Under the pieces are notes generated by a model. That model saw nothing but the letters and a program-made list of their open reading frames with translations, did no database searches and was not told where the DNA came from. From contig JADHXR010000017.1 in assembly GCA_016782865.1 (NCBI GenBank), positions 1 through 64,000 on the forward strand: a DNA stretch of 64,000 nt, written 5' to 3'. Source of the DNA: Phycisphaerae bacterium. GTDB taxonomy: Bacteria; Planctomycetota; Phycisphaerae; Sedimentisphaerales; Anaerobacaceae. Positions 1,088 through 42,396 of the stretch are shown here, one piece after another. Both the position numbers and the translations under genes were made by a program. Within the stretch, counting starts at the first letter, position 1. Each line of letters starts with the position of its first letter.

Positions 1088-1093
1088 TCAAAA

Positions 1094-4393: not shown

Positions 4394-4408
4394 CCAGAGA
4401 AGGGAAGA

Positions 4409-5218: not shown

Positions 5219-5242
5219 TCTGTTGCAAATTCTGTTGCAAAT
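5219..5242 (+). repeat. Tandem 12-bp repeat at the intron 5' boundary
   Basis: TCTGTTGCAAAT occurs twice back to back, directly outside the estimated 5' end of the intron. Eleven of the twelve bases recur at 2260-2270 inside the integrase tail, where they encode part of NLLQK. The copies may be leftover integrase 3'-end DNA or the exon sequence recognised by the intron. Confidence 0.5.
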
Positions 5243-5417
5243 CGTAGGTTCGGGTTAGTCTAATATAGTGATACCCAAATCGAGCGGTGCGCAACGGATT
5301 TGAGTTTATGGATGAAAATGCCGTGAAGATAACTCAGTGCCCTGCGGTTGAATGAACGAGTCTTGTATCTGATGGCTTGAGAAATGGACAGCCATCTGGT
5401 TCACTCATAATCGTTCA

Positions 5418-5738: not shown

Positions 5739-5799
5739 TCATTCAACTGAACGGATTCAACCGGACCCATAGCCTCTATCTTCCCTTAACGAGCACACA

Positions 5800-6105
5800 C
5801 TAACCGATCCTACCCCATATGTCCCATTCAAAGGTGAAGCGGCGTCGCAGTGGGTTGTAGAAGTCCAGGCGGATGGTGACACTCTCGCCGGGGTCGAAGC
5901 GCCCGTCGTTGAGGTAGGGTGTCAGGTCGAAATAGGTCTGGCCTACACCAGTGGTGCCGTCACCGCCGACTAAACTAACATTGGGATCACTCAGGCTATT
6001 GATCACGAAATGCACATCACCACTGATGACTCGACTTGAGGTGTTGGTGATGGTGATGTAGCTGCTCATCACGCCTGTACGACGGTTATAGCGTAATCCG
6101 GAGGC
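5800..6105 (-). other. C-terminal domain shared with the 5418-5738 fragment
   Basis: The last 97 or so residues run from GLRYNRRTG to RRRFTFEWDIWGRIG. Position at the extreme C-terminus and homology to the separate copy suggest a conserved terminal module, possibly for sorting or anchoring. Confidence 0.65.
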
Positions 6106-9100
6106 CTGCATGGTCACCAGATCACTGGCGAGCTGGGGTTCCTGCCCTGCGGATTCAATGGTGAGTTCATTGACTGTTTCATCCATGCCCACATTGCCCA
6201 CAGTATCTGTTGCCATGACCTGCACATCATAGGTCCCCACTGCCAGGGCCGGACTGATAGTCCCGGCAGCCAAGCTCCAGGTACCGTCATTGTGGGTGAT
6301 CGCATCATAGGTATTGCCATTTAGGCTAACTGTGATTAGCGCGTCCTGATCGTCCACAGTACCGGTCAGGGCCGGACTGCTCGCGGTGGTCGTCTGGGCA
6401 TCGACAGTGACCACCGGGGCGATCGTATCGATGCTCAACTCATTGGTCGTGTTGTCGGTGCCGACATTCCCGGCTGGATCTGTGGCCGCCACGGATACAT
6501 TATAGATATCGTCCGGCAGGGACTCGGCAAAGGCCGTGCCGGGCAGATACCAGGTGCCGTCAGTATTATTCGTGCCGTCATAGGTCTGGCCATTGACGGT
6601 TACGACTACGCTTGCGCTAGGATCATCCACGGTTCCAGTCAGGTCCGGGGTGGCATCATTGGTTTGGAGTGTATCCACCGTGACTACCGGGGCCTGGGTA
6701 TCGGGGATAAGGCCTGCACCGGCAATCGCAAAGTCGTAGGGATTCTCATCCCCATCATTGTTGGCAAGGGTGATCACTGCACTACGCTGCCCGGCGGCAC
6801 TTGGACTGAAAGAAATCTGGAAGGTAGTCTGCTCCCCGGCGGAGATTGATGTCACAGCCTGCAAAGTGACTGCAAAGTCCGAGGCATGGCTGCCATTGAT
6901 GGAGACTGGAGGCGTACCCATAAGCTCCAGGGCTCTGGAACCGGTGTTAACAATGGTGAAGGTGCGCACCACACTATCACCTACGTCTACCGTGCCGAAA
7001 CCAGTATGATCTGTCATACTGGGTGTCATATCGCCATCAGTGATCGAGTTGCCATTACCTTGGACGTCGATCTCGGGCACCGGTATGGGAATAACCGTAA
7101 CAGTCAGGACCGCCATATCCGTGGAGCCATCCTCATCGGTGACGCGGACGGCAACGATGTAGGTCCCATTGATCAGCCACGTGTGCGATTGGGTCACTCC
7201 ACTATCATCGGAGGCATTGAAGGTCGAACCGTTAAAGTTCCAGTCCCATTCGTACAGGGTGATCTCGTCGGGACTTGAGGAAGAGCCGCTGGCGTCAAAG
7301 GATCCGGATTGGCCTTCATTGAGTGTTGTGTCGCCCGTCAGAACGGCTGTGGGGCCAAGGTCATTGACGGTCACGATCAGCGTGTCTTGACCGATACCAC
7401 CGTCTTTGTCGGTTATTGTGACGATTATCGCGTATATCCCATGATCTGAATAGTCATGGTTGAGATTGAAGGTCATTCCAGTCAGGGCCAATGGCTGGGC
7501 GCCTGCGCCGTCATCATAATCAACCGTGGCTGTCCAGGTATCCGCTCCTGGGTCAGTAAAGAAGCCAGAGCCAGTAAAAGTAGTGCCCTCGTCGATAGTG
7601 GCGTCAAGGCCTGCATTAACGGTTGGGGCGACATTGTTGACAGCCAAGTCGAAGGCGGCCTCGGTTGAAAGCCCCGCACTGTCAGTGGCAGTAATAGTGA
7701 CGGTCTGACTCTGCTCCGGACCGTCAGTGGTGGCAAGGGACCAGGTCCAGGTGCCGCTCTGAGATCCGATCTGGGTGATCGTGCCGATCGAAGTCGTGAT
7801 CTCTACTACATCGCCCTGGTCAACGTCCGCGAAGGTGCCTGTGTTGGTGGCTGGATCACCTTCGCTGACGGTAACGCTGGTATGGTCAGTTTCAATTTGT
7901 GGCAGGTCGACAATCTCGTTGATATTAACCGCCACCGTCGCAGTATCAGTGCCGCCCTGGCCGTCAGAGATGATATACCTGAAGCTATCGAGCCCGAAGT
8001 AGTCCTGATGGGGGGTGTAGCTGAACGACCCATCCTCGTCCAGGCTCACTGTGCCATGAGCCGACTCTTCCACAAGGACCGCTTCGAGGACGTCCCCATC
8101 CACATCGCTATCGTTGGCCAACACACCTGGGGCAACCACGGTCAGCGTGTTGTCCTCATTCACGCTGTAGTCATCGTCAGCCGCCACCGGAGCATCATTG
8201 ACCGGATTGACGGTAATTGTCACGGTAGCCTCAGCAGAATCGAACTCGCCATCGCTTGCCGTGTAGGTAAAGCTGTCAGTTCCATTGAAGTCGGCGTTTG
8301 GCACATAGGTAAATGAGCCATCGGAATTTAGGGTCAACACGCCGTCCGAGGAGCCGCTGAGGAGCGATACCGTCAGCGGACCGCCGTCTGTGTCGCTGTC
8401 GTTTCCAAGAACGCCGGAAGCCGCGACTGTAAGCGGAGTATCCTCATCTGTCGTGTATGTATCATCGTCTGCCATCGGGGCGTCATTAACCGGAGTAACC
8501 GCAATCATCACCGTTGCAGCATCCGAGAACAACATACCATCTGTGGAGCGGTAGCTGAAGCTGTCGGCGCCGTAGAAATCGGCATTCGGAGCGTAGCTGA
8601 ACGACCCATCGCCATTGAGCGTCAGAGTACCATTGCTGACGTCGCTCACCAGTGATGCCGTAAAACCGTCGCCCTCTGGATCACTGTCGTTGTCGAGGAC
8701 GCCGGGAGTAGCAACTGTCAGCGGAGTGTCTTCATCGGTTTCATAGGCGTCATCTGCCGCGACAGGAGCGTCGTTCACCGGCGTAACGGAGATACTCACC
8801 GTGGCCACGTTGCTGGCGGCTCCTTCGTTGTCATTGACCGTATAGGTGAATGAATCGCCCGTGGTCTCCGAACCGTCGTGTGCGTAGTCAACCGTGCCGT
8901 CGGCGTTGACCACCAGACTGCCATTGGTCGGAGCAGTGATGATCGTGAGCGTCGCCGCGTTGATAGTACCATCGATGTCAGCGTCGTTGGCCACGACGTC
9001 AACGTTGACCGTCCCACCTTCGGCAACTGACTGGCTGTCATCGTTGGCCTCCGGAGCATCGTTCACCGAATTGACCGTAACCGTAACCGTCGCCGTTTCA

Positions 9101-12100
9101 CCGGCTCCATCACCATCTACGGCGGTATAGGTGAAGCTGTCGACGCCGTTGAAATCGCCATCTGGCGAATAGGTAACCGTGCCGTCAGGATTAATCACTG
9201 CCGCGCCGTTTGCTGGATTGCTCAGAGAAGTTACACTGAGAATATTCCCATCAACATCAGTATCGTTGGCAAGGACATTAACCGTAACTGTAGTATCTTC
9301 GGGCGTTGTCGCCGAATCATCATTGGATACAGGAGCATCGTTCACCGCATTGATCGTGATCGTTACGGTTGCGATATTCGAGTCCAGCAAGCCGTCGTTG
9401 GCATGGTAAGTGAATGAATCAGTCCCGTTGAAGTTGGCGTTCGGTGTGTAGCTGAACGATCCGTCGCCATTCAGCGTCAAAGTGCCATTGGCTGGACCGC
9501 TGTCCTGTACCACCGTCAGAGGATCGCTTTCTACATCATTGTCGTTGCCAAGAACACCGGCAGTGACAACTGCCAGCGGAGTGTCCTCGTCGGTAACATA
9601 GGCGTCATCATCGGCCACAGGGGCATCGTTAATCGGGTTGACCGTGAGCGTAACCGCAACAATGTTAGAATCTGCAGTACCGTCATTGGCATGATATGTG
9701 AAGCTGTCAACGCCGCTGAAGTTAGAACTGGGACTATAGCTGAATGATCCATCCGCATTCAACGCAAGAGTGCCGTTGCTCACATCAGTGTCCAGAACCG
9801 CCGTCAAGGGATCGCCATCCACATCGCTGTCATTGCCCATAACTCCGGGCATTGCAACGTTGAGCGCCGTATCCTCATCAGTGCTGTAGTCATCGTCCGC
9901 CGCAATCGGGGCATCGTTTATTGGATCAACAGTAAATGTAACCGTCGCCGTATCGGTGCCGCCCTTGCCGTCGCTGACTTCGTAAGTGAATGAGTCGGCG
10001 CCGTGGAAATTCAAATCAGGTGTGTATTCAAATGAGCCGTCGTCGTTTAGTGTCAAGGTTCCATGTGAGACATCTGACAACAACGTAACAGAAAGAGGAT
10101 CGTTATCTGGATCGCTGTCATTGCTGAGAACGCCCTGGATCGCATCTATCTGCAGGGGGCTATCTTCGTCAGTCGTATAGGTGTCATCTATTGCCACCGG
10201 CGATCGATTAACGAGTATGCTGACTATCGCAACGTTGGATTCATAGCCTTCGTTGTCACATACCGTATAGCGGAAACTGTCAGATCCGGCGAAGCCGGGT
10301 TCAGGATCATAGGTGACTACCCCGCTCATCGGGTCAATGTCAACGGTTCCATGCTCGGGACCGCTGCCATCGACAATGACCACGGTCGTCGGGTCAATCA
10401 CACCATCCAGATCAACGTCATTGGCAAGGACGTCGATCTCAACCGGCTGGCCAATTCCTGTTTCGGCAGTGTCATCCGAGGCAATCGGGGGGATGGGACC
10501 TTCACCAATAATCATGACGTTGTCAATTACAACCTGACTGTCGTTGTCGCCGAAGCCGAGCAGGTCGAAGTACAATGTCGCAATCGTGCCGGCAGGAACT
10601 CCTGTCAAATCGACTTCAATTGTGATCGGCCCCGCGAGCGACAGAGTCTCACCGGAAGGACCCAGGTCCGGCACGAGAACCTGCGAGCCGAAGTATGTCT
10701 GGCCGGAAGGCTGGATGTTCAAGAATGCATCGGTATTGTTCAAGCCGTCAGCGGTGCCGACCAGAGAAGTCATTGTCTCGGCATTCAGCAACGCGACTTC
10801 AAACGCGTCCGGCGGGTGGCCCTCACTGGCACCCAGTTTGGCGCTGACGATGGTAAAGAGCAGCGTCTGTGCACCGTCAGGCACAATAAAGGTCTGCGAC
10901 ATACCGCTGAAGTACCGCCCACCTTCCCCAAACACGGCCCGGCCGTGCTCAACACCACAAGCACCATGGACGGCCCAGCCCAAGCCAGGATCAGTCATAT
11001 CGCTGATTGAGAACATGCCATTAGTAATCCCAATGTGCAGGTCTTCAGGATCATATGTGTCTTGATGCTGGGCAGCGTCAACAATGTCGCCACCGTCGCT
11101 GGACTCGTAGACCGGAGGAAGAAAATCATCAGAGGGCGTCGTCTGGTACTCAGGCGATGCTTCGTCCTCGGCAGGTTCCTGCGTCTCCGGCAGATGGAAC
11201 AAATCGAACTGCGAAGGTAGCCGGCGGACACCGGCCGGCAGAACGCGCGTCATCAACCGAGTCGGGTCAATGCCCGCCGGCACATCGGCCAAGCCCAACA
11301 CATGGCCCATCTCGTGCATGAGCACTGTCAACAGGTCAATCTTGCCCGCCGCCGGACTGTCAACGTCGGCGTACAGTTCCCAACTGTAAACCGCATTCGC
11401 GAACTCTTCGTCATCCCACGGCGTCTCATCGACAAACCACCCGTAGCCGGCCGCATCCTCGTCAATCGAGATCTCGTCATCAATCGTTAGGGCCACAGTG
11501 TTACCAAGTAGATCGGCCGTCTTGAAAACTACATCATCGAAGACCACAGGTGTAAGGGAATCCCACTCGGTATGAATCCGAGTAACCGATTCCTGTACGA
11601 AATGTTCCAAAGCGGAGACGGTGAGCAAACCTTGCGGCTCTGCGTATGCTTCTTCTGCATTTTCTTGGGGGCGTGTAGTAGAAAGCATGAGAAACGACGC
11701 GGCCGAGTATGCGAGTTCCTGGAGCGATCGGTCGTTTTCCTTCGCACGGCCGGCGGAACCTAAACCACTAATTGCGTTGTCCTCGTAGTCCATCACTCTC
11801 GAAAAGGGACCACTGCCGTAGGATGGGTCATATAGCTGACCATCATACCGCACGATGAAGTGGAGATTGAAGGCCCTGGGTGTATCGTCATTTCCTTGTC
11901 CATCGGCAATATCGAAGTCAACAGCATCGAAATCGATCACGTAGGGAAAATCAGTTCCAGGAAACACGCCGTCCTGGGCTGTATCGTCAACTGCCGGCGC
12001 CGAATCTATGACTCCGTTATCGCCCACCCCAATGTATGCTCTATTAGGCGCTCCCTGACCTATGGGGAAAAGCGGAACATCGTCGCCCAGCTCAGCAGTC

Positions 12101-15100
12101 TGTCGTATGCCATCGGACCCAGTGTGCACCCAAGGAGTCCCAAATCCATCGAAATATACTCCGTCGTCGGATGCCGGTTGACTATCGAGAATTCCATTCG
12201 GACCAGTACCGATACAAGACTGGTTGGGTTGACCGCTTCCTCGGGGAAATAGCGCTTCATCGTCTCCCAGCAGCGTGGTATCGCCAACACCATTCGCGCC
12301 TGTGTGTATGTGCTCGCCGAATTTCCACTCTTTGATCAAAAGGGTGTCGGCAGATGGGTACAGCGAGGTATTCGGTGTCACTGTCAAAATCTCCGAACTG
12401 CCAATACCATTGGCGTCAAGAACTTCATGGAAAAGTTGCGCCCACGCGCTGCAGCGTCCGTCGCTGTTACCGTTTGGATTCAGCATCCCGGAAAGATCCG
12501 TACACGCACCTTGCCCAGTAAGCCAATAACTCATTTCTTTGCCATCAGGCACGTTAAAACCGTCCATGGCCTTGCGTCTGACACCAGGAATCGGACCTTG
12601 GAAGTCCATCCAGACGGCATCGACCGCATCATTCGCACTGCTCATTCCGATCGCGTTGCGCGCGCCAATATCGAACAATGTCTCGTAGTTCGTCTTCGTC
12701 CCGGCGTCGGGAGGCGCGAGCGTAGCGTATACTCGGTTATCTGTGGATCCCGCTGGAATGTAAGACGTTCCACCGTCAAGCGAGAGTTCCCAGTGGACTA
12801 GGAGGGGAGCGTAGAACAGGATCGTGTTCGGCAACAGGGCCGCCGCAGTGGCACTTGCGACAGTCACGATTGCACCGCCGATGTCGAAGTTGCTATCGCC
12901 TACAAATGTCGTGTTGAAAGATGCAACGCTTGAAGGGGAACCTGCAATGTAGTCAAAACCTTCTGCCTCACCTCGCAACTTTGCGCCTCCCTTGTGGACC
13001 TCAGTATCGAATTCAAAGGTCAGATTGTGGACCTCCATCGTGTCGCCTCTCGTGTACGCAATCGGGAACCGACGGTCGGCGACATCTTCAGCATCCCCAT
13101 CTTTGTTCGCATCCAACCAATCCAAACCGTCATACGGCTGACCATTGTCTTGGACTAAGGCATGATTGCCATCGAACTCGAGCTGGCGGATACTCGGCTC
13201 GACGACGAGCAACCTGATGCGATCCTTAACCTTCGTAGTTCCATCTGGGCTTTCAAGGGACACTTCCAATACGACTGGTCCTGGTGTCTTGCCTTCCACA
13301 TACATCTCTTGTGGCGGGGCGAGATTACCCCCGATGATAAACGTATTTGATAAGTCTATCTCTTCTACTTTATCTGCGGCTGTCCAGAGTCTTACGATAT
13401 TCGCCCCCTCTGTCATCTGGATATTAACCTTGTAACCGCTCAGGTCAGCGAGGTTTGGATAGAAACTAAGTGTAACTTGTGTTAGGTCATTCTCTTCCGG
13501 AGGACTTCCTGGCCCCACATCATTGAAATCAGGCACTCCGTTATCGTCGTCATCGTCCTTATTGACACCTACAAACTTGCCAGGATCTTCTTCTTCAATG
13601 TGGTCGTCACTGCCGGATTGAGTGTTGTCCGGATCGATTGAGCCGTCATTGTTCGAGTCGGTATCAATGTCAACCACAGGTGGGCCAAAGGAGATATTGT
13701 CCAGAAGCATCGAGCTGTCTACAGTGTTGAACCATCCGGGTGCCTGCAACTCGAAAGAAAACGCTGCTACAGTATTCCGCGCGCCGGTAGGTACTGCCAG
13801 AACTCTGGTTTCAAATCCTGGTGTTTCGCTGGAGATGTCGACCGTCCCAAGTGAGAAACGTACACCCGCAGCCGTGTCGATAAAGACTTCGAGAAGATCG
13901 TCGCCGCTTGGCTCCAGAAGCTGAATATCGAACCTCAGATATTCTCCATCCCCGGGGATATACAACCGGTTGTGCGTGGCTCGATTGTTCTGGACAAATA
14001 AATCGATGGAGCCAAGCTTCAATGAGTGATTGCCGTCCGATTCTTCCAGATTGCTTATCCCGCTTGAAATTAGACCTCCGACCTTGCCGCCGTGGTATGA
14101 CCAGCCGGGAATTGCGTAGCTAAGTGGTGGGAACCGCGAATAGCTGTGAGTGTCGTACAGAGTCCCCGATTCGAAGTCGCCGTTGAAGACAGATGGAACG
14201 GCCTTTTCACGCGGTGGTGTGTCAGGTCCGTCGAGTTCGGTGTTGTCGTCGTCGACTGATGTACCGTGTGCGCTCGGAGTGCCATAACCGCCGCCGAGTG
14301 CTGAGTAGTACCAACCTTCGCCAATGCCCTCCCATATTGCTCCGGGATCTTGGTAGTTGAAAGGATCAGGATCGCCACCTTCATATGCGAGGTACCACGG
14401 CACTTCATTGTAATCAACCAGAGGATAAAACAATATGGAACGGCTAAATTCCTGGTCTCCTATGGTTCGATAGATTCGATCATCGCCAAATTCGCGCAGA
14501 GCCAGATCAATAGTGCCGGTGTACCAGTTGGTGACGCGACCGTGGGTGCCGCCTTTTCTGTCATCGTACGTGAAACCTGCACGACCGTCAAACCGGCGTT
14601 CGATATCAGCACCTGCAACTGAAGTGCCGTTTGGCGTGAGCGTGCCGGAAGTCATATTTGCGACACGCTGGTAGTAGTTGTCGAAGTAAGTAATGTTCTC
14701 CCACCGTATCACGTTGGGATCATGGAAATCGTCATAGTGAAACATACTGAGTGACTGCTGCTCAAAGTCATGCGGATCCAGCGTCGTCATGTGGATGTCA
14801 TTTGTAGTACCGAGGAAGTAGGTTCCGAGCCGTTGAATGATCTCGCTATTAACGACCGTACCACGACTGTGACCGATGAAGTGCAGAGGTGAGTCGAATA
14901 CCTTTCCACCTTGCTGCTCATTCAACCGCACAAGAGCAGCAAAGATGGCATCAGCCGCTGCCTCGGAGAATCCCGAGTCGTTAATCCAGGACTCCTGCGC
15001 CCAGTTAGAGATGAGCACCAACGGCTTGCCGGCTTGGAGGGCCGATGGACCCACCCAGCCACCGGTGCTCCTGTCATAGGTCAAGATGGTTCCGCCGCCA

Positions 15101-18100
15101 GCCGCGTCAATGATAAGCTCAGCCATTTCAGCCGGCCACGTGGGGACAGCTAAAGTGCCAAGGAACTGAAAGCCGTGGGTGATAATGGTCACGCTATCGA
15201 AGTTGTCGGTGGTAAGATCGACAGGATCAGCGATGAAGGGAGCCGATGAACGAGCCACTCGTCCGTCTTGAGTCGTGACCTCGACGCCCCAGAAGTACAT
15301 CTGGCCGGCGGTCAGTTTGAGATCACTTGGCAGCGTGAACTGGAACACATTCGGGCCCAGGTTCAACTTCGTGAGAATCCGATTGGGATGGCAATCATTT
15401 GGATCCACGCCTACTAATGCCGTGTCGAGAACCCGGTCATGTGGGAACAGGCCCTCGCCCTCGGGGAAGACGCTGACATAGAGCTTGCTTGTGACAGGCT
15501 GCGAGCCGATGATACTGCGGTCGACTTCCCACTCGAATGTTGGGTCCTGAACCGCGCCGCCCACGGTGGGAACGCTGCCTGCGGGTGATAGGAGCGTCAG
15601 GAAATGATTGGTCTGGCAGGACATTCCCTGGGCCGAGCCGCCGATAGTCAGCGGGGTCACATGAATGTCGTACCCGGCGAGTTGGTCGATGGGTGTGATT
15701 TCCAGATCATCGGCAGGGGCGGTTTCAACGGCCCGTATCATCTCACGCGTATCCATAGCGAGGATCTCGCGCGGCCCGATGTAGCTGGCATAGAGGCGGC
15801 TGCCGTCAGGAGTCAGGGCGAGATTGTCCGTGCAGCCGAAGTCAAGCGGAGTCGTCGAACCCAAGAGCTTGGCGTCGGGGCCAAACGGGTCTTTTATCAC
15901 TCCCACCTTGTCGCCCCGCTCGCCCTCGAAGCCGGTCATCAGAAACATCTGCCACTCGGCGACAAATGCGTAGGAGAGATCGGGCGAGACAACCACATCC
16001 CAGGGAGTCAAAAGGCCGAGGTGGTAGCCCTGATAGGATAAGAGGCCCTGACCGAAGGTTAGGGGCAAGCCGCCATGGCTAACGCCCGACAGGATGTGCC
16101 CGAGTCCGGGATAGCCCGTTAACAGATTACGGTCACCGATTTTTGTGCTGACCGTTTTGACATCAGCGTCGAAACTCGCTACGTTATTGTTGGTGACCGT
16201 CAGTGTGCCAAACTCACCCAAGTGTCGCGGCCAGCGACCGATGAACCCTGTCATGTAGATCATATCCCAGTATCGGTACATGCCGCTGATGGGGTACCAG
16301 TACGTGAAGGCCAGCTTGTTTGGATCGGAGGTAGCGAATATTCGGTGTGGAGGGCCATCGGTGTCAATCCGGGCGATGACCTCGCGGTATCTGTTCGGAT
16401 TTGTATTCGGGTCGGTTGGCTGGTCCTCCGGGTCGATATTGATGACCGCGATCCATCCCTCCTCGCTCTGGCGTGTGCAGGCATAAAGGCGCTTGCCGTC
16501 GGCGCCGACCACAAGCTCGGCGCGCCGGGCCCGGTAAGCCGGCACTTGAATTGTCTCGACGACCTGGTGGAAGGCTGGGGAACCCGGCCGGATGTCAATT
16601 ACGTGGATGGCTGGAGCATCGCCAGCGGCATACAAGAAATGATCATCAGGATCGACAGCAAGTTGGGATGCCCCTGCGCCGCCCGGCATCGAGATGAAGC
16701 CCACTTCCGTAAGGGTTATAGCATCGACAACCGCAACACCAGGACGTCCGCTGGGCATTGCCACATAAACGCGCGAGCGATCGTGAGTCGGCATGGAATC
16801 CATCGTAAAACTGTTCAGGTCAATCTGTCTGATCAGTGTGTTGGTATCTGTCGATGCGTCGAATACCGCCAAGCCATTATTGGCGCAGGCAAAGCCAAGG
16901 CCGCCAAGCGGTTCGACCCGCATCGGATTGCTCTCCCCAGCCTCGGGATGGACCACATACACATCGGTCAGGGCCAGTATCATGCTGGCAGGCAAGCTGG
17001 CCGTAATACTTGTGTCGCTCTGTGATGACGGGCTAACCTCGACGTCCTGCAGCCCCATCTTGAAGTGGACCTTTGTGTCCGTGAAGGCCTGCCCCTCAAT
17101 CGTGACCGTTGGCGACCCTGTGAGGACATCATCAGCGCGTATGCTGGTGATGAAGGGCTGCTCCGGCACCGGCGGAAGCGGGAGTGTGACCTCAGTGCGC
17201 ACCGTTGTTCGATCCGCCGGAATCTGTACCTGTACGGTTTGCGCAGCATAGGGCACTGTATCGGGATGATCGCCGCGGTAGCTCCATACCTCAAACTGGA
17301 ATAGCGGAATGTACGGAATGGGCATACCGATCGGGAAACCCATCGACATGAGAGGAACGCCAATTCCGATGAACGTATCAACGGCGGTGTGTAGATCAGT
17401 AATGCCACCGAACCAGCTTATCCCGAACTCAAACGTGATCTTCTTCTCGGGCGAGTCCCATTGAGCACAGAGGTACTGACCGCCGTCGCTGAATCCCGGA
17501 TACGGTGGTGAGGTAGTCCGTGCTATGCCGTCATCGCCAACAACGCCGGTATCGATAAGCATCCATATCTGTTGTGGGTTCCCATCGGGATCCAGCAGTT
17601 CCATGTACTCGAAGAAATAGACTGTCTCACCAGCGCCAACCACAGGATCAACGGGCACGGCCAATTGGGCCGGCTCACTGAGTTTGGCATCACCGAGATC
17701 GAGCTCAAATGCCGCCCCAAACCCAAATGGTCCTGGCACCGCTGTTGGTAGACCCTGCTCGGTGATCGGCTCAACGGAAACTTGGACATCCTCTTCGACG
17801 GCACCCGGACCAATCGCCACAACCGTCCCGCCGGAACCTTGAACAATCCCACCTTCCGACCCGACAAGGACAGTTCCACTCTGGGGAACCTCAACTCTCA
17901 CGGGTATGACCGCTTCGGCAGGCCCGTGAATGATCGTCAGCGTGGTTTCGCCAGACGCCAGTGCCGTGACGAGTCCATCTTCGGCGACTGCAATCACGTC
18001 GGAGTCGCCCACGACGTAGACTGTGCCCGCAGAACCAGCAGCAACATCTATGTCGTCACCGATCTTGACAACGAACTGGCGCAAACCACCACTCGCAGAC

Positions 18101-30100: not shown

Positions 30101-33100
30101 GGGAGCGGCTCCACGTACATTGGTACTGCAAGCACATTGTTGGTGTCATTTGGCCACTCGTCCATAGCTCCGTTTGCATCCGTGAAGACCAGGACGAAGA
30201 CCTCCCCCCGGTATCGTAGCGGAACCAGCACCGAATCTGAGACAGACATATAGCTCTCGCCGGGGGCCAGTGCCGACTCGTTCATCATTTCGTCAATAAG
30301 GACATCGTCGTAGCTCACTACGTTGTCGAGCGACAGGTATACCCTGTCGCGCCAGTTCGGTGATGTAGTGGCCACGGTGCCCTGATTGATGACCACGAAG
30401 TCCACACTGAAAGTACCGCCGGCGTCTACTTCGCTCGGAGCAACAACGGATGTAACCTGCAAATCCGGGCGAGGCTTGACTGTGACTGCCATAGCCTCAT
30501 CATCCACCTTGGTGTTGTTGGCGGTGGCGCCATGTTCATAGAGGTCTTCAGTATGGTTATGGTTGGTCGTAACGACAACTTGATATAGATCGCTTATGTG
30601 GGCCGGCAATTGCAGTGCTTCCCAGCGTGTATAGCTCATACCTGCGCCCAGCGGACCTTCATAAGTGAAACGCCCCAGATTGATCTTTGGGCCGGTGGGG
30701 TCTGAGACCCGCTGCAGATAAACCCTATCCTGCCACGACCCCTCCGCCGAACCGGTGCCTTGATTATGAACTGTCCAGGAGACGTCGATCAAGCTACCCT
30801 CCTCAACGGTCTCGGGGGCCACGATGTCAGTGACCACCAAATCCGGTGGGGCAGTTAACTCTACTGCAAAAGCTGCCGAGACCTCACTGTTGTTATCGGT
30901 GTAGACGAACTCAAATGGTCCTCCCGTCGTCACTACAGCATAATAGGTGCCCTCAAGCCCGTTGGGAAGCACCGCAGTGCCTGTTCTCTCATAGCTGCCA
31001 CCGACTGCGAGATGACCATAGTGAGTGAATGGCCCGAGCCACGCAACAGTGTTTTGGCCTGCCGGATCCTCCGCAAGCCAGAGTTGATCGCTCCAACTAC
31101 CTCTATTGGTGGTTCCGATACCCTGGTTCGTGACCGTCCAGATCACGGCCATCGGCTGGCCGCTGGAACCCTGTTCGGGCACCTGGACATCCGTAACGAT
31201 CAGATCCGCATACGGGATCGGCATTACATCTAAAATCTGACCGGATTCGCCGGCGTTGTTTGTCTCGGAACCGTCCTCGAAGACCAGATCCTCGATGTCG
31301 GTCCTCACGAACAAGTGGTATCGGCCGACAAACTCAGCGGGCAGCAGGAATGTTTCACTACGCGCATAGCTCCCGCCAACGTCGAGAGCGCCAATGTGCT
31401 CAAACTGAGTCAGCTCGATGTCGTCGCTGTCGCCGACGACAGTATTCGCAGAGACAATAACAGCATCGATCCAACCGGCAAGTTCGGTAGACCTTGTGCC
31501 CAGGTTCTCCACAGTCCAGGAGATGGTCACTGACGCGGGGTCACCTATTGTTAGCGTGGGTCCGTGGACATCCGTAACCGCCAAGTCAGGATAAGGAGCC
31601 AAGGTTGCCATAACCAGCACAGCCGCGCCGTTGTTGCTCTCGGCATCAGCGGCGACGCTGTACTCAAATATATCATTGGCCGAGTCGCTGGAGACCGATA
31701 TCTCCAGTTGGCCTACGCTCGCGGAGCCATCCGGCACTGTCAGCATGAACTGACGGTCCTGCCATTGCCCGGCGCCGATGACGCCACTAACCGTCGGATC
31801 GTAGATGATTGTTTCGGTCAATAGGATCTCGCTGGTGTCAGTGTTGAACACACTGACCTGTTCGGCGAAGCTGTCCGCTACGGCCACAGCACCTATGTTC
31901 TCTGTGCGCCAGTTGACCGTGACGTCCTCGCCGGTCTGGATGCTGGCCGGATCAGCCGCGAGATTAGTCACAATCAAATCCGGATACGGCGCGAGGGTCG
32001 ACTCCACAGCCAGCGTCGCGGTGTTGTTTTGTTCGGCGCCGCCGGCGGAGGCGTATTCAAAGACCTCGCTGCTTGAGTCTGTAATGACCAGAATCTCAAG
32101 CGGGCCCGCTCCTTCAGGGCCTTCCGGCAAAGTGAAGACGTGCTCGCGAAAAACCGAACTGCCGGGATCGAGCACGCCGTCCATAGCGGGATCACAGACT
32201 ATCTGCGTCTGGAGCACAATCTGTCCACTTGTCACGTTGGTCACAACCAACCGCTCATGAAACACACTGTTCGCAGGGCCGGTGCCTGAGTTGAGCAAGT
32301 TCCAACGAACCGTCATCGGGCCACCTGAGTATAAGCTTGTCTCGACGACACTCAAGCCCGAGATCTCAAGATCAGGAAGCTCCGGATAGGTCAGAACTAT
32401 TGGACCGTCGGCAAGGATATTATTTGTCTCATCGCTCTCCGGCTGGTGGTGCAGACCGTCGGTCTGAACGAGAAGGAAGTACTCGCCCTCGTCGAGTCCG
32501 TGCACTAGAGGCAGCGTTACAGGTACATTAGCCTGCTCGTACTGTTCGCTTGGCTCAAGCGGCGTTGTCGGTGCGGAGATTGTTGCGATAAGGGTATCAC
32601 CGTCACCAAGGGCCGCGTCACGGGACAGCCATATACGGTCGTACCAGTTATGCCTTGTGACACCGTCGCCCTGATTGCGAACGGTCCAGTCGACGCTGAT
32701 TGGCTCCCCAAGCCGGGCAGCTGTGCCGGTCAGGACAGACTCTACCACCAAGTCCGGTGCTCGAATCTCGATCAGATGAGGACCCGAATGGTTATTGCCC
32801 TCAAAATTGAACTCAAATACCGCCTGGTAGACATCGGTAACTACAAATAGATAAGCGGGGCCGCTGGTGTCGGTCGGCAGACTCACTGTGGCTTGTGCTG
32901 TGTAGCTAGCGCCGATAGGCAAGCTGCCATCGTGCCGAACGGTGCTAAGTGTTCTGTCGTCTGCGTCACCATAGATATCGTTGCGGCTCAGAATGACACG
33001 ATCGTGCCAAACAGAAACCGGAGTCTCCGCCGAAGCGTTAGAGGTATTGGTGACTGTCCATTGAACTTCGACCTGCACTCCGATGTCAGTGTCTAAAGGT

Positions 33101-36100
33101 GCATTCATGATCGCAGCAGTAAGATCAGACACCCCAATTGTTATTGGCCAGGCAGAAACATTGTTGTCCTCATTCGACTCATAAACGTAATTGTGAACAT
33201 CGGTCCTTACTAAAACATAGTAGTTGCCGGAAGGAACGTTAGGTACGTAAGCAGTAAGGGTTTCTGAATAATCTGCACCCGCAGCGAGGGGCGCGTTCGA
33301 GCGCGAATACTCACCAAGATAGATGTCTGAACCATCCCAGACATTATCCGTTGAGAGGTGGAGACGATCCGACCAGTATCCGAATAGTCCTATTGCCGTG
33401 CCATCACCTTGGTTTTCTACCGTCCAGGAGACCTCAATCTGCCCCTGTGTGCTCGCAGAAGCCGGGGCATTAGTAACCGTCACCACAAGATCAGGCACCC
33501 TGATTGTCATTGGCCAGGCAAGAATATTGTTGTCTTCATACCGGAATTCGTATACGGCTTCTCTGGCATCGGTGACAAGGAACAGGTAATACGAACCGCT
33601 GATGCCGGTGGGTATCGTTATGATTCCACTTTTGCTATAAGATTCGCCGACCTCCAGAGCACCGTCGTGCAGGAACTCAGCGGCGCTCCAATCGTCGCTG
33701 TTTCCGTAGATGTTGTCCTGACTGAGAACAACGCGATCATACCACTGTCCGACCGGTGTAGTCGTCCATGCGTTCGTGGTGTTCTCAACCGTCCAGGACA
33801 ATTGGACCTGCTCCCCAACAGATGCCGCTCCGGGAGCAACGAGGCTTACCGAGTAGAGGTCGGCAAAGACTTGTGGAGCAACGGCTATCGGTGCACTTCC
33901 GGTGGCAAGATTGGAATAGGTGTCGATGTGCTCGTAAACCGTGTGTTCATAGTCTGAGAATACAAAGACGTTGAAGTCACCGGCAATGCCTGCAGGAAGG
34001 GAACCAGACCAACTGCCATCATAGGATCCGCCGGGAACAAGAGAACCCGAATGCAGAGCGTCGGCCACAAACCGATCGTCTGCATCACCATAAACGGGAT
34101 TGGAGGAGAACACCAAACGATCTGTCCAGCTTTCAACTGTGCCCCCTGGGGTACCGTCGCCGGTGGTACCAATCCCTTTGTTCGTCACCTGCCAGGTGAT
34201 CGTCACTGGCTCATCTGACACCCCTTGGGAAGGCGCTACCACATCGCCGGTAACCAGATCCGCATATGGGGTGAGGTCAATGTGTATCTGAGAGTCGCTT
34301 CGGCCCACGTTGTTGTCCTTCAGGTTGAACTCAAAGACTTGACCGGTGGCATCGGTCTTTACCAGAATCCAGTAGTCGCCCGAGGCTCCAAGTGGAACCT
34401 GCAAGTCTGCCTCGACCGCATACTGCTCGCCCACATCCAAGACGCCCACATGCTCTACAGAACCAAGCAGCAGATCGTCCTCATCACCGTAGGTTTCATT
34501 GACCGAAAGGACCGCCCGATCATACCACAGCTCCTTGTCTGTCACGGCTGTGCCGTAGTTGCCGACTGTCCACTCCAAATGGATCGTCTCCCCGCTCGCG
34601 GCGATTGCCGGGGCTGCAACGCCGGCAACACTCAGATCGGCAAACTGCAACTGGCCAGTCGGAGCAATTGTTACATCCAGCAAGTACTGGCCGAAATGCC
34701 CCTGCCCGTCGAGGGCCAACACCGCGGCGTAATACGGACCTGTCGAAGATATATCCACCCTGGCAACTGTCTCATCGGTGGGATTAGGATTAACTGAGAC
34801 TAAGCTGTTGCTTGCGTCACGAATCTCAATAACTGGCCGTAGTGTACTTGTATCAGGAAGAATAAGACGGCCCAAAATCGTTTCACCTGTCTCGACGGTC
34901 CCAAGATCAAAATAGTCCTCGTCTACATTGCCGGACTCGCCCGCCATCACGGTCCCTGCCACTTGTCCCGTCCGCTGGAGTCCGCTTGTTTGCAGAGTTA
35001 CGGGATTGGCCCCTCCGACTGAGTCGTTGCTATAGTTGGCGTCTGACTCCAGGTCAATCCCGCGGGCCAGCTCCACCCGCAACTGGTAGCTGCCAGCGGT
35101 GCTTGAGTATGAGTAGTGACCCACCCGAACGTAATACGTCCCGTCCGACGGGATCACATAGTGGCTAATATAAGCGTCAGCATCCGGACCAGAAGAATCG
35201 TCTCCGATCAACGAGTTGCCTGAGGAGTCATATAGATAAACTAATGAATTCAAGTCGCTGGTCGGCGTGTCAACGGCCACCGCCACCCGATCCTCCGCAA
35301 CCGCCTCAAAACTCCACCAGTCCGAATCTGTCCATGTATCATAATATACCGCCGGGTCTATCGAGCCTAAACCATGACTCAGAAAATAGCCACTGTCGAC
35401 AGGGTCCTCAGCCAACACCAAGGCTGTTGCCGTAGAAAGACTGTCGTTGCTGCGGCCTTCGAAAACAAACTCAGGTGGAATATTTACACTGAAGAAATGC
35501 TCGTATGCATCGCCGCCGGTTCCATCACCATTTCCATCTAATAGATTACCCACTATATCGGTCAGAGAAGGTGTAACGGTTAATCGGTAGTCACCTTCGT
35601 CCATCGGACCGTCGAAAATCTGCAGGCTAATCGTCGTCCCGCCAGTGTAATCGGGAGAAACCCTCAGGTCGTATACGTCGTCATCAGCCGTATCGAAAAT
35701 ACCATCCGCTCCCGCTTCTCGAAGATCCCAGCCGTCTAATGGGTCCGACGGATGACTATCCAAAACATCCGGCACGCCGTCGGCATCGCTGTCAACATCC
35801 GAATCCAACTCCACTACCAAACTGTAGGACCACGAGTTATGCCGGGCATGCCAGAGACCATCAACGTTGTACACAAATGCCCCATTGTAGCTGGAGCTGC
35901 TTGTAGGCTGGCCACCGGCCCAGTTCGTGTAGGTTACCTCCTCACCGCTGGACCATACCCAAGTACCTTCCTCCTCATAGTCATTTAACCCGTTCCAGAA
36001 ATGTTCCGAACCATACTGAGCGTACAGCCAGTCCTGCTCGGCCTGGTCGTCGACCGTCGCCAAATGGCCACCCAACGACTGGGCATATGCCTCCGCATCC

Positions 36101-39100
36101 TGCCAATACATCGCCGTCGAGTTCAACACGTATGTATGACCATCGTACGTGGCGAAGTCGTACAGCGGTGTGTTCACTGTAGACGGCTCCAACACCTCGC
36201 TCATCGTCACGTTGAATGTCGAGATCATATCTGAGGTAACACCACCGTCCTCCGGCAGCCGGCTCACATCCGTCACCACAGGCGGTACAGGATCTGAAAC
36301 ATCTATGTCCAATAGATACTGCCCCAAAGGCCCCCAAGCGGGTTCGACCAACGACCGACCCTGAACATCCTCCAACTCCACAACACCGTAGTACCCGTAC
36401 CAATAATACTCAGCATACCATAACCCATTGGCCGAGTGCACAATTGCACCATCTTGGTCACCGTAGCTGTACGGCTGACCATCGGCCCAGTTCGTATAAT
36501 CCACCGGCTCACCATCGGACCAGACCCATGTCCCTTCCGCCTCATAGTCATTCAGACCGATCCAGAAGTGACCCAGCCACGAAGCAAACGTAGAATACAG
36601 CCAGTCCTGCTCGGCTTGGTCATTGATCGTCACCAGGTGGCCACCCAGTGATTGGGCAAAGGACTCCGCGTCGGGCCACGTTTGGCCGCCTGTGATAAAG
36701 TAACCACTGCCTTCGTGGACCCAGAACAATCCAATCTGGGCGTAGTAAAAGCTGTCCGATGGGATCGTGGCCAGGAAATGACCATCCAGCAAATCGCCAT
36801 CCTCGTCCGCCACGTAGTTGCCGTCCTCATCCCACAAAAGTACCCGAGGCACCAAAGTGCTCATAGAAGGCAAACGTACGTCCAACTCTACCACGTTACC
36901 CGCGTTGAGCACCCCCAACGCATAGCAGTCTTCGTCGAAGTTCAAACCCTCCGGTGACATGAGCGTTCCTGCCACCGTCGCCCTGCGGTGGATATCATCC
37001 TCTTGAAACGTTACTTGGTCAGCCCCGGAAATCGAATCATTGTTATAGTTGGCGTCTGACTCCAGGTCCATCCCGCGAGCCAGCTCCACCCGTACCTGGT
37101 AACTGCCAGCGGTGCTTGAGTATGAGTAGTGACCCACCCGAACGTAATACGTCCCGTCCGACGGGATCACATAGTGGCTAATATAAGCGTCAGCATCCGG
37201 ACCAGAAGAATCGTCTCCCGTCAACGAATTGCCAGCAGAGTCATATAGATAAACTAATGAATTCAAGTCGCTGGTCGGCGTGTCAACGCTGACCGCTACG
37301 CGGTCACCCGCCAACGCCTCAAAACTCCACCAGTCCGTATCTGTCCATGTATCATAATATACCGCCGGATCGATAGAACCTAAACAACGCCCGATGAAGT
37401 AACCGCTGCTACCGGGGTTCTCAAGTAGGGACAGCGGTGTGGCTGTGGAGCGGCTGTCATTGCTCGCACCTTCAAGGATAAGCTCAGCTGCCAAATCCAA
37501 TGCGAAGAATTGCCGATATGGGTCACCTGCGCTACCGTCCGCATTGCCATCTAATGCGTTGCCAGCGCGATCGGTCAGCGAAGTAGCGGCTGTAAAGCAA
37601 TAATCACCACTGGAAAAAGGCGGGCCATCCTGAAGATACAGCCTGACATTAGTGCCAAACTCTGTGTATACCGTCGACACGAGCAATCCGTAGACCAAGT
37701 CATCTGCTGTGTCGAACAGTCCATCTGCACCGGCAGCCCGTAAGTCCCAAGAGTTGCTATCACGGACCGTTGCGGCGTTCATCTGTTCGCTGAACGTTAG
37801 TAAAATAGAGTTGAGCGGATCTTCGGACGTGCTTGCTCCCTCAGGTAGACCCTGAACGTCAAGGACAACCGGCGGTACGAGATCGATTACGTCAACCTCC
37901 AGCAAATACTGCGCCCAGTTGCCGGCGCCTGCATTGGCCATAACTCTGGCATAGTAAGCTCCGTCCGAGGCAATTGATGTCAGAAAATGTCCATCGCCGG
38001 GTGAGCCATCTTCATCCGTCAATTCGGCCCCACTACCGTCCATCAGCGTGATGTTCGGAACCAGCGCGCTACTTGAGGGGAGCTGGACCGCAAGTTCAAC
38101 AACATTCCCCGCACTGAAGATCCCCAAAGCGAACAGGTCTTCGTCCGTGTTCGTTCCTTCAGGTGTCATAACTGTACCAGCCACAGTTGCCACCTGCTGA
38201 CCGGGAGCATCTTGGCTCAGCACCAGCCAGTTAGCTCCGGAAATAGAGTCATTAATGTAGTTGGCATCACTCTCGATCTGAATTCCCCGGACTAAGTCTA
38301 CACGCAGCCCGTAAGTCCCCGGTGTAGAACTATAGCGATCCTTGCCCGCCCGAACGTAGTAGGCACCACTGCTGGCAATGGTGTAGCGGCTGATGAAGGC
38401 ATCATTGCCCGGCCCATTGTTGTTATCACTTGCCAAGACTCCATCAGCGGAGTTTCGAAGTTCAACGTACGGGTCGAGGTCGCTCCCAGGCGTATCGACG
38501 CTGATCGAGATCACATCTCCCGCAAACGCCTCGAAACTCCAGTAATCTGGGTCGCTCCATGTGTCGTTATATGTAGCCGGCTTGATCGATCCCAATCCTC
38601 TACCCATGAAATAACCACTTCCGATAGGATCCTCCACAAAGGACAAGGCCATGGCTTCCGATAAGACATTGTTACCCTCCACCTCGATGATCACGCCGGG
38701 AGCGTTGGCCACTTGGAACGTCCGGATGAAATCGTCCCCGGCAACACCATCGCCGTTGCCATCCAGGGCATTTCCGGCATAATCCACAACGACCGATGCG
38801 AATGCAGTAAAACGATACCAGCCGGGCGTAAGATGAGAGTCGGTTATGTCGAGCCCAATCGTAGTTCCCGTCGTATACTCAGGGTTGGTGGAAAGGGGAT
38901 AGAGCACGTCATCAACCGAACCAAACGTCTCGTCAGGCCCCGCGCTTCGCAACTCCCAGCTAGCCGGATCGTTAGCCGCGCTCGCGAGAAGATCTTTACT
39001 TACCTCCACCGTCAGCCGGTCAATCGCCGCCGTGACTGATTCGCCATCGGCTGGAAGCGGTGCGAGTTCGCGGATAACGGGGGGACTTGAATCTGCTGCA

Positions 39101-42100
39101 TACCGAGAGTAGTAATGCGCTGCAATACGTTCAGGCGAGAGAGCCGTATTGAAGACAGCTACTTCGTCGATGATACCATCCAATGCCTGGTTTGGATCAA
39201 AACCACCGCCGACCGAATCTTGGTCCTGTCCAATGATGAGGCCACTCTCATTGACCGTAAGCTCGGAGAGTACAGTTGATTGTGCACCGCGAGAAACGCC
39301 ATCTTCATACAGCACAGCTTTATTGTTTGTGCCATCGCGCACTATCGCAAAGTGATGCCACTGGCTGTCGGCAATGGATGGGAACGTCCAGGAAACATAA
39401 CTCCCGACGCTCTCACCGGTATAAAACCTTAAAAAAGAATCAGAGTCGAAATAGATCAGATACTCGTTATTATTGCCACTGTTCGATCCACTGATGATAG
39501 AATGCATACCTGTATCTGAAGTCCTGAGCCAAAACTCAATGGTCACATTCAACACCCCATCTAAAACCTCATTAGGTAACATCACGTAGTCATCAACGCC
39601 ATCAAAAATAGCCGCCGTGTTGAAATCACCCACCAGGGGGCCTGATACGCCAAGTGTAATCCCGTTGACATATCTCCCATCGAGACCATTGCCAGAGAAA
39701 TCTGTGGCAGCAACGCCGGATCGCTCACCCAGCCTGTAGTACGCTATCGGATTGTCCGAAAGTATGGTCTGCTCATATTCCCTACTGGTAACCTCAAATG
39801 TATGGACGAAATCATCTCCGCCTGTCCCGTCAGCATCACCATCCAATAGATAACCGTCAATGTCTGTCAGGGATGAACTAAATGCGGTTAAACGATACCA
39901 TCCAAGTTCGAGCGGGCCACCCGCAATTTCCAGAGTGATAGTCGTACCCGATTCGTACTGTGGGCTTGCCGAAAGATCACGAGTAAAATCGTCAGAGGTT
40001 CCGAACATTTCGTCTGGTCCCGCACCCCTCAGCTCCCAACTTGCTGATTGATTCACTCCGCCGGGCAAGAGGTCTTGGCTCGTCTCTACAGTCAGGTGCT
40101 CGATCGACGCCGTGACGGATTCGCCGTCGGCCGGAAGCGGATCGACGCTTATCACTACAGGCGGACGAGGCGCGCTGGCATAGCGGGCGTCGTAATGCGC
40201 AGCAATACGTTCGGCCGAGAGGGCATGGTCGAAGATGGCAACCTCGTCGACGCTCCCGTTAAAGTTCCTTGTGCTCCCAAATGCCCAGCGACTAATGTTT
40301 AGGGGGCCTGTGTTGTTGACAGGTGTTCCATTAAAAAGAGCCGAGCCCTGAAGAATTCCATCTAAATAAAGTCGTATACTGCTCCCATCAAACACCCCGG
40401 CAACATGATGCCATGTATCGTCCAGAATAGTCTCTTGGGTAGCCACTCCTGGAAACGCGCTGCCATTGCCAATTAGGAACGCAAGCCGGCCAACATCTGT
40501 CTTTCCTTGCATGAGCCAGCCGCTCCAATAGGGGGCAGCTTCAGTGCTCCTGTGGGACTTGTCAATCACGGTGAAATGCATGTCGGGACTTAGCTGGGTT
40601 GGATCGCCTTTCAGCCAAAGCTCAACGGTGAAAGCAGTGTTGACATTTAGGTCCGAGTCGTGTCCAACATAAATATAGTCATCAGCGCCGTCGAAGACTG
40701 CTGCAGTATTGGAATCGTCTACCAGCACACCTGGTACACCAAGCGTCACGCCGTTGACGTATGTCCCATCGAGACCGTTGCCGGAGGAGTCGCGTGCAGT
40801 AGTGCCGGAGGTCTCACCCAGTCGGTAGTATGCCACTGGACTATCAGATATGATGCCGCCCGTCCAGAACGAGCCCAATCCCTGTACGGTCAGTTCCTCC
40901 GTTTTGCCGGTGTAGGCTATGGGTGCCATCCCAGCAACGATCACGGAGTTCCCGCCAAACGTAACTTCGCCACCCCGTGGGTCCAGCGTCAGCTCGTCCC
41001 AGCCAGGTCCTCCATCGAATGATATTGCTACCAGTGCGGACGCAGAACTGATGGTCACGGCGTCATCGCCATCGCCAGTGATGATTGTGAACGTTGCCAG
41101 ACCAGTCGCTATGAGCCCCGCGCTATCGATAGTGATCGTATCTACATCGGTCCCGGAAGAGTCATTCGTGCTGGTATCGATAGTCACATTCGTCACATCG
41201 AAGAATGTGACCGCCTCAAATGCGGTTCCCCCGGTGGTGCCAGATATCCGGTTCTGACCAGGGGCTGGGCTGTCAATCGTGATGATGTCGACACCCGGGT
41301 CCGTCGTAGTGAAGGTGTAATCCGTAACGCCACTGACAGTAGCCGGTTCAAGCCCAAAGAACGATATGCTGATAGTGGCGGATGAACCAGCCAGTTCGAT
41401 GGTGCCCGAACCGGAGCTGATGGGCGTATAGTCCGCAGAAAATGACGGTGTCCCCTCCACATTCAGGCTGTCGTAACCACCTTCCCCACCCCAGTAGGAT
41501 ATGTCGCAACTTATTGAGCCTGACGAATTCAGGTCAATAGTGAGCGTATCATCAGCCTCATCCGAGCCAATGATGTGGACAGCATGAACAGCGGCTGCGG
41601 GCCCACTACCGAGCACTTCTCCCGTGCAGTTGTCCAGCAGCTCAACAATCGCTGAATCGGTGCTTCCGAGGCGAAGCGTGAGATCGTTTTGCTCCGCTGA
41701 GGCTCTGAATATCCACACACTGCCAGAACCTTCTTCAATACCGACAGGGGCACTTGCTGTGATGGCAGTTGCACTGACTGGAGGCCCCCTGATCTCGATG
41801 GATGTGGCATATTCGATGTTCAAATCAGCATCATTTGGATATGTCGGCATACTGCCGTCCTCATCTGGGAGGGCAGGACTATTCGTTGCCAGATTCTCGC
41901 CTGCCGTTAAGTTGACGGTCTCTGTAGCAGCGGCTCGATGATCAATATTTCGATCTGGGTCACCCGAGAAAACACCAAGATCAGCGTTGGTCTGGGAAGG
42001 ACCAACATGGCCAATGTTCAAATCGCCATCCGTCCTATTTAAGTGGTCAGTGGGGGCCAAATCCGTATCGATTGCTTCGCTATTGACATTGCCATCGCCA

Positions 42101-42396: not shown

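What the first reader, a model, noticed from the sequence alone, without database searches (positions are those of the whole stretch)
5800..42396. A 12,198-residue single-frame surface protein carrying three enzyme-like modules
The 36.6-kb frame is open throughout and begins with a planctomycete LEPR motif. Most of it is adhesive repeats, but an esterase-like GxSxG segment (Ser 9177), a transglutaminase-like Cys-His-Asp set (9982/10179/10190) and a metzincin-like HExxHxxGxxD (10361-10371) sit in order over about 1,200 residues. Such a cluster inside an adhesin could crosslink, process or de-esterify the chain or its partners.
Basis: partly seen in the sequence, partly recalled or inferred. Interest (0 to 1): 0.7.

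Follow-up and report, generated by a model that had tools for sequence, protein, structure and literature searches.

The report
Giant surface protein with swappable enzyme
A single planctomycete gene encodes a 12,198-amino-acid, probably surface-exposed, protein with three enzyme-like domains, and relatives in unrelated bacteria show that one of these positions is a slot where different enzymes are exchanged (a nuclease in some, a transglutaminase-like enzyme here), so it may be a giant effector-carrying protein rather than just a sticky one.

Summary
The 36.6-kb open frame is real: 12,198 aa, minus strand, GTG start, LEPR motif. The three enzyme-like segments sit at the stated residues and are conserved in relatives. 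Residues 9061-9400 model as a lipase-like alpha/beta hydrolase, Cys9982/His10179/Asp10190 are invariant in a transglutaminase-like domain family, and 10361-10371 belongs to a matrixin-like metzincin. This is one member of an unnamed giant-protein family found in Planctomycetota, Verrucomicrobiota, Alphaproteobacteria, Burkholderiales and Cyanobacteria, with a fixed order: CARDB, He_PIG, RHS-N-like, dockerin, propeller, hydrolase, variable slot, metzincin, tandem-95. Metzincins align in 153/153 pairs, slots in only 20/153. Slots hold transglutaminase-like, Endonuclease_NS, OmpA or RHS modules; one broken copy ends in an ADP-ribosyltransferase. Some cyanobacterial relatives have stand-alone nuclease cassettes, and ten carry an antisense pentapeptide-repeat gene nested inside the slot. 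The best reading is a polymorphic-toxin-like surface protein with internal exchangeable cargo, transglutaminase-like in this copy. Delivery, catalysis and processing are inferred. The window's genome shows no cassettes or partner gene, so it is not filed as a polymorphic toxin.

The parts
5800..42396 (-). Single open frame, 12,198 aa, GTG start
42256..42321 (-). LEPR-XLL domain, residues 26-47
   Evidence: NF012209 E 3.5e-6
36397..40719 (-). LamG/pentraxin, PPC and C-type lectin domains, residues about 560-2000
   Evidence: Pfam
27397..34719 (-). CARDB repeat array, residues about 2560-5000
   Evidence: Pfam, 14 stretches
20587..23499 (-). He_PIG (putative Ig) repeats, residues about 6300-7270
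   Evidence: Pfam
19297..20079 (-). RHS N-terminal-like segment, residues 7440-7700
   Evidence: weak DUF6531/RHS matches; about 30% identity to planctomycete giants with RHS repeats
18727..18888 (-). Dockerin type I, residues 7837-7890
   Evidence: Pfam
17467..18429 (-). Big_2/ZU5-like segment, residues 7990-8310
   Evidence: family-wide conservation; ZU5 is a visual resemblance only
15676..17214 (-). TIG plus beta-propeller-like segment, residues 8395-8907
   Evidence: Pfam TIG and Lactonase, weak; conserved in family
14197..15216 (-). Lipase-like alpha/beta hydrolase, residues 9061-9400; Ser9177, Asp9207, His9285
   Evidence: A3; AF2 model pLDDT 78; PDB lipases Z 13.9
13477..14196 (-). Sandwich-like segment after the hydrolase, residues 9401-9640
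   Evidence: conserved with hydrolase in relatives
11692..13014 (-). Slot occupant: transglutaminase-like domain, residues 9795-10235; Cys9982, His10179, Asp10190
   Evidence: A7, A6 model core, sense-frame selection
11977..12318 (-). Two 'TGANGxxDT' repeats inserted between the catalytic Cys and His, residues 10027-10140; absent from the small relatives, more copies in L041
11197..11613 (-). Matrixin-like metzincin, residues 10262-10400, HEMGHVLGLAD plus Met-turn
   Evidence: A4, PDB profile hits, Pfam Peptidase_M10 just below cutoff
7597..10209 (-). Tandem-95/Big_9/cadherin-like repeats, residues about 10730-11600
   Evidence: Pfam and NCBIfam
6742..7074 (-). Choice-of-anchor D domain, residues about 11775-11885
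   Evidence: NCBIfam
5803..6204 (-). Conserved C-terminal domain, 80-90% identical in three paralogues

Best explanation
The gene encodes one member of a cross-phylum family of giant, probably exported surface proteins that works like a polymorphic toxin with its cargo inside the chain. Shown: a fixed scaffold (lectin/LamG head here, CARDB and He_PIG repeats, RHS-N-like segment, dockerin, propeller), a lipase-fold hydrolase, a variable slot, a conserved matrixin-like metzincin, then adhesive repeats and a conserved C-terminal domain. Shown: slot content differs between members while both flanks stay homologous; in this copy it is a transglutaminase-like Cys-His-Asp domain. Inferred: the repeats reach and bind another cell or a polymer, the hydrolase and metzincin prepare the target or free the cargo, and the slot enzyme does the work on the target. 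Not shown: export, cleavage, delivery or any enzyme activity.
For: Slot variability: hydrolase pairs 105/105, metzincin 153/153, slot 20/153 at E<=1e-5. Paralogue C170 is 59% identical over 4834-8481, unrelated in the slot, then 45% from 10278. Slot contents: Endonuclease_NS in six cyanobacterial members scanned, OmpA in a sphingomonad, a long RHS-repeat stretch plus Rhs core and an unknown end in G034, transglutaminase-like here; a broken Oscillatoria copy ends in ART-PolyVal. Tox-TGase, Tox-OmpA, nuclease and metallopeptidase domains are cargo kinds in the polymorphic-toxin survey PMC3482391. Stand-alone cassettes in Oscillatoria PCC 7112 and a Microcoleaceae MAG: C-terminal part of the hydrolase plus nuclease, next to convergent pentapeptide-repeat genes. 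Ten of ten uninterrupted cyanobacterial members carry a codon-aligned antisense pentapeptide ORF in the slot, with sense position 1 the most divergent in about 25 of 27 compared pairs. The RHS-N segment also occurs in a 12,618-aa planctomycete frame ending in a Pput2613-type deaminase. Free-standing transglutaminase-like relatives of about 350-760 aa exist in the class. Transporter genes lie behind two relatives: a C39-type ABC transporter in Calothrix, an adaptor/PqqD/SecA-like set in Pseudosulfitobacter.
Against: No stand-alone cassette, antisense partner or immunity-like gene was found for the window's gene; the transglutaminase-like region is under selection in the sense frame. Cargo is internal, whereas polymorphic toxins usually carry it at the C-terminus. 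The window's neighbours show no exporter. A transglutaminase-like enzyme could act on the bacterium's own matrix. The hydrolase-bearing relatives were found with the hydrolase as query, so its apparent constancy is partly by construction. Slot boundaries were set by me.
Confidence: 0.5

Rival explanations
1. A multifunctional surface adhesin-hydrolase: lectin, LamG, dockerin and Ig repeats bind particles or other cells, and the lipase-like, transglutaminase-fold (as protease or amidase) and metzincin domains digest them outside the cell for feeding or predation. Slot differences reflect different substrates.
For: Adhesive and carbohydrate-binding-type domains dominate. Giant genes are widespread in Planctomycetota and mostly read as surface proteins (PMC5177795). 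A giant protein in Omnitrophota was proposed to degrade target-cell polysaccharides (PMC10066038). No immunity gene in the window.
Against: Does not by itself explain nuclease and ADP-ribosyltransferase cargo, stand-alone cassettes or the nested antisense partner genes in relatives.
Confidence: 0.3
2. One reading: the enzymes act on the chain itself or its neighbours, with metzincin self-processing, transglutaminase crosslinking of a coat or stalk, and esterase trimming.
For: Metzincin is constant in the family and always follows the slot. LapG, the best fold match of the transglutaminase-like core (Z 5.2), cleaves the giant adhesin LapA (PMC3032545).
Against: Lys is only 0.7% of the chain, so lysine for Gln-Lys crosslinks within it is scarce; the transglutaminase-like domain is absent from all other sampled members but C44; no cleavage site is identified.
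Confidence: 0.12
3. Decayed enzyme folds kept as inert spacers or binding modules in a structural protein.
For: The hydrolase nucleophile is Gly in 5 of 23 relatives; C44's transglutaminase-like domain keeps the Cys but shows no clear His/Asp.
Against: In this copy all catalytic residues are intact; HExxH and Met-turn are invariant in 17 metzincins, Cys/His/Asp in 11 relatives.
Confidence: 0.08

Closest known systems
Polymorphic toxin systems (Zhang et al. 2012, PMC3482391), including RHS proteins
   Same: Constant long scaffold, exchangeable enzymatic domain, RHS-N-like segment, stand-alone cassettes and partner genes in some relatives
   Different: Cargo is internal, followed by a metzincin, adhesive repeats and a conserved C-terminal domain; in cyanobacteria the partner gene is nested antisense within the giant frame; no cassettes or partner in the window's genome
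Planctomycete giant genes / LEPR-XLL surface proteins (e.g. Fuerstia marisgermanicae, largest gene 36,239 bp, PMC5177795)
   Same: Size, phylum, LEPR motif, Ig/cadherin/dockerin repeats
   Different: A defined cross-phylum architecture with an enzyme core and variable slot; not found described in the papers searched
Matrixins/bacterial M10 metzincins (karilysin, snapalysin)
   Same: HExxHxxGxx(D/H) and Met-turn; profile hit to karilysin E 1.3e-5
   Different: Third ligand Asp here, as in snapalysin (from memory); own N-terminal 'AAGxGWFxDxTP' motif; embedded in a giant chain; fold not confirmed
Bacterial transglutaminase-like cysteine proteinases (LapG), PeiW/PeiP, PNGase, NTAQ1
   Same: Cys-His-Asp order and core fold in a weak model
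   Different: No Pfam Transglut_core match in this copy; a 110-aa repeat insert sits between Cys and His; in cis in the giant chain, whereas LapG acts in trans
Pancreatic-lipase-like alpha/beta hydrolases
   Same: Fold (Z 13.9), GHSxG, Asp just after the strand that follows the Ser helix, His in an 'HxRV..WY' motif like the lipases' HxRS motif (resemblance from memory)
   Different: No sequence-profile match to solved structures; extra N-terminal Ig-like domain

Membership tests
Polymorphic toxin system | Variable enzymatic domain on a conserved scaffold | tested here: met
   Slot 20/153 pairs alignable versus 153/153 for metzincin
Polymorphic toxin system | Stand-alone cassettes that can be recombined in, near the main gene | tested here: not met
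   None in the window's draft genome; present in two cyanobacterial relatives
Polymorphic toxin system | Cognate immunity gene beside the cargo | tested here: not met
   No candidate in the window; pentapeptide partner in cyanobacterial relatives
Polymorphic toxin system | Toxin domain at the C-terminus | tested here: not met
   Slot ends about 1,960 residues before the C-terminus
Polymorphic toxin system | Cargo toxic to a target cell | not testable with these tools
   needs bench work
LEPR-XLL planctomycete giant surface protein | LEPR-XLL domain near the N-terminus | tested here: met
   NF012209 E 3.5e-6
Metzincin/matrixin (M10) | HExxHxxGxx(H/D) and downstream Met-turn | tested here: met
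   HExxH and Met-turn invariant in 17 relatives; PDB profile hits
Metzincin/matrixin (M10) | Metzincin fold | tested here: inconclusive
   Model of this part under pLDDT 50
Transglutaminase-like superfamily | Cys at a helix start, His and Asp on following strands | tested here: met
   Invariant in 11 relatives; core model places them so, pLDDT about 70-89
Transglutaminase-like superfamily | Fold match to a solved member | tested here: inconclusive
   LapG Z 5.2 over 108 residues, all listed hits of the superfamily, but model weak
Alpha/beta hydrolase, lipase-like | Fold and Ser-Asp-His order | tested here: met
   Ser lost in 5 of 23 relatives
RHS protein | YD-repeat barrel and Rhs core | tested here: not met
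   Only an N-terminal-like segment in this copy; full RHS in G034

The most novel reading that the evidence does not exclude
An undescribed cross-phylum class of giant (11,000-13,000-residue) effector-carrying surface proteins that display or deliver exchangeable enzymes from an internal slot closed by a conserved metzincin; in cyanobacteria the cognate immunity gene is nested antisense, codon-aligned, inside the giant gene itself.
Probability: 0.42. Interest if true: 0.82.

Novelty: new variant of a known kind. Interest (0 to 1): 0.64.

Why it matters
Giant bacterial genes are common in Planctomycetota but their purpose is an open question. A family with a fixed scaffold and a swappable enzyme slot, shared by cultured, plasmid-bearing strains (Anabaena cylindrica PCC 7122, Calothrix, Pseudosulfitobacter), makes that question testable in the laboratory: the cargo, the metzincin and the nested antisense partner can each be assayed.

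Tried and rejected
Sequence families alone: the hydrolase and transglutaminase-like segments have no Pfam match and the hydrolase has no PDB sequence hit. A joint alignment of transglutaminase-like and metzincin rows (A5) put the C-terminal part of the former on the metzincin, so it was not used for folding. A secretion operon beside the gene was looked for and not found; neighbours are 3-keto-disaccharide hydrolase, GFO/IDH/MocA oxidoreductase, CBS-PAS histidine kinase, DisA-like, CstA and EngA/Der GTPase genes. ZU5 autoproteolysis: the segment resembles ZU5, but there is no Pfam ZU5 match and no conserved HFS site. A nested antisense gene in this copy was tested and rejected: the plus-strand ORF 12304-12801 has no Pfam match and divergence from L041 is highest at sense position 3. 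Misassembly by repeat collapse was considered and found unlikely. The idea that all three enzymes form a conserved cluster was rejected. Paper searches for this architecture found nothing specific.

Full report
Observation. The frame lies on the minus strand, 42396..5800, and encodes 12,198 residues with no internal stop. The GxSxG pattern alone is uninformative (9 seen, 8.2 expected), while the extended zinc motif is expected 0.0019 times. The frame is translated and selected: against paralogues and relatives, differences concentrate at codon position 3 over thousands of codons. The assembly is a draft (240 contigs, 84% complete, contig of 65,116 bp), but there are no near-identical internal repeats. 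Open frames of comparable size occur in relatives: 10,951 aa with LEPR start in G170, at least 11,126 aa in G034. On complete plasmids of cultured strains there are annotated genes of 33,453, 34,794 and 38,214 bp.

Anatomy. From the N-terminus: LEPR-XLL; LamG, pentraxin-like, PPC and C-type lectin domains; about 14 CARDB repeats; He_PIG repeats; an RHS N-terminal-like segment; dockerin; Big_2/ZU5-like and TIG segments; a propeller-like segment. Then come the hydrolase, a sandwich-like segment, the transglutaminase-like domain, the metzincin, tandem-95 repeats, a choice-of-anchor D domain and a conserved C-terminal domain.

The hydrolase. With 23 sequences (A3) AlphaFold2 gave a model with mean pLDDT 78 and pTM 0.85. 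Its best PDB matches include many lipases (Z 13.9, rmsd about 4.2 over about 215 residues). The order Ser9177, Asp9207, His9285 fits a lipase triad. The Ser is Gly in five relatives (three Sphingomonadales, L101, L096), so some family members may be inactive.

The transglutaminase-like domain. Eleven sequences, most from frames of 350-910 aa, keep Cys9982, His10179 and Asp10190 without exception. A 110-residue double repeat is inserted between Cys and His here; it is absent from the small relatives and longer in L041. The combined model is poor (pLDDT 43), but its core of pLDDT 70-89 puts Cys at a helix start and His and Asp on strands. All listed structural matches are transglutaminase-superfamily enzymes: LapG (Z 5.2), PeiW, PeiP, NTAQ1, TgpA. 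The profile's only PDB matches are peptide:N-glycanases, at E 0.73. Whether it crosslinks, cleaves or deamidates cannot be told.

The metzincin. HExGHxxG and a Met-turn are invariant in 17 sequences, with Asp or His as likely third ligand. The profile matches karilysin (1.3e-5), MMPs and snapalysin. Pfam Peptidase_M10 falls just below its cutoff in this copy (22.3 versus 24 bits).

A family with a slot. The hydrolase used as a query found 22 named loci, most with the same surrounding order, in Planctomycetota (e.g. Aquisphaera insulae), Verrucomicrobiota, Sphingomonadales, Rhodospirillales, Burkholderiales and Cyanobacteria. C170, G034 and G170 share the scaffold and metzincin but lack this hydrolase. 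The metzincin was not used for sampling those, yet it follows the slot in all 18 members compared. Pairwise, metzincins match in 153/153 cases, hydrolases in 105/105 (partly by construction), slots in 20/153. Slot contents are transglutaminase-like (this copy; a divergent one in C44), Vps62-like (weak) plus a second GYSRG hydrolase (C170), RHS repeats with Rhs core and an unknown end (G034), OmpA, and Endonuclease_NS.

Cassettes and partners in cyanobacteria. In Oscillatoria nigro-viridis PCC 7112 the main gene is broken and ends in an ART-PolyVal domain. Two separate frames follow, each starting inside the hydrolase homology and continuing into Endonuclease_NS, each with a convergent pentapeptide-repeat gene behind it. 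A Microcoleaceae MAG has a similar array. In ten uninterrupted cyanobacterial members a pentapeptide-repeat frame of 156-250 aa lies antisense inside the giant frame, just before the metzincin, always codon-aligned. Between Anabaena and Nostoc, divergence there is 0.34/0.18/0.24 at sense positions 1/2/3, against 0.09/0.06/0.17 in the hydrolase. Across 27 pairs position 1 is highest in about 25 (pairs are not independent). So the antisense frame is under selection. The window's copy and the sphingomonads show no such signal. PLSDB's gene table for Nostoc sp. TCL26-01 lists the nested gene.

How it most likely works. The repeats and lectin-type domains place a very long exported chain against a target; the slot enzyme acts on that target; the hydrolase and metzincin open, prepare or process. 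The cassette arrays and partner genes make antagonism the best reading for cyanobacterial members, and by homology a plausible one here. For this copy it is an inference: no cassette, partner or exporter was found nearby. A feeding or predation enzyme platform is the main rival.

Comparison. It works like a polymorphic toxin (PMC3482391) but fails the C-terminal-cargo, immunity-gene and local-cassette tests in this genome, so it is not filed as one. Giant genes in planctomycetes are long known (PMC5177795, PMC5352709, PMC11573180); the slot architecture and the nested antisense partner were not found in the papers searched. I rate it a new variant of a known kind.

Noticed in passing
L096:13268-14017, L143:21769-22305, L144:21325-21849, L146:21814-22365, L148:21373-21840, L149:11505-12041, L150:11040-11567, L151:11280-11834, L152:11094-11621, L153:10857-11528 (all minus strand): Pentapeptide-repeat genes nested antisense and codon-aligned inside the giant frame's slot in ten cyanobacterial relatives; the substitution pattern shows the antisense frame is selected.
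   Followed up: partly
L147:20713-23124 and 24160-26232; L090:14626-21675: Stand-alone cassettes of hydrolase C-terminal part plus Endonuclease_NS (or Endonuclease_NS alone), most followed by a convergent pentapeptide-repeat gene.
   Followed up: partly
window 5427-5729, minus strand: A second, 48% identical copy of the C-terminal domain, in another frame just behind the stop; paralogues C147 and C170 have similar remnants with the same frame offset.
   Followed up: partly
window 4410-5161, minus strand: Group II intron parts (D1-D4 at 4967-5161, D5-D6 at 4410-4480), too close together for a full reverse transcriptase, just behind the giant gene.
   Followed up: no
window 1043-2572, plus strand: Phage-integrase-type recombinase gene close to the giant gene's 3' end.
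   Followed up: no
G746 contig C1, 2.50-2.54 Mb (L129, L121) and 3.31-3.33 Mb (L122): Two open frames of 12,618 and 12,114 aa in one single-contig planctomycete genome with the RHS-N segment; the first ends in RHS repeats and a Pput2613-type deaminase.
   Followed up: partly
G000 contigs C170, C44, C147, C190, C200: Paralogues with the same N- or C-terminal domains; C170 open for 8,547 aa to the contig edge, C147 a 2,816-aa form with both ends but no enzyme core.
   Followed up: partly
L145:27304-33296: Adaptor, PqqD-type and SecA-like translocase genes behind the 38-kb Pseudosulfitobacter relative, a possible dedicated exporter.
   Followed up: no
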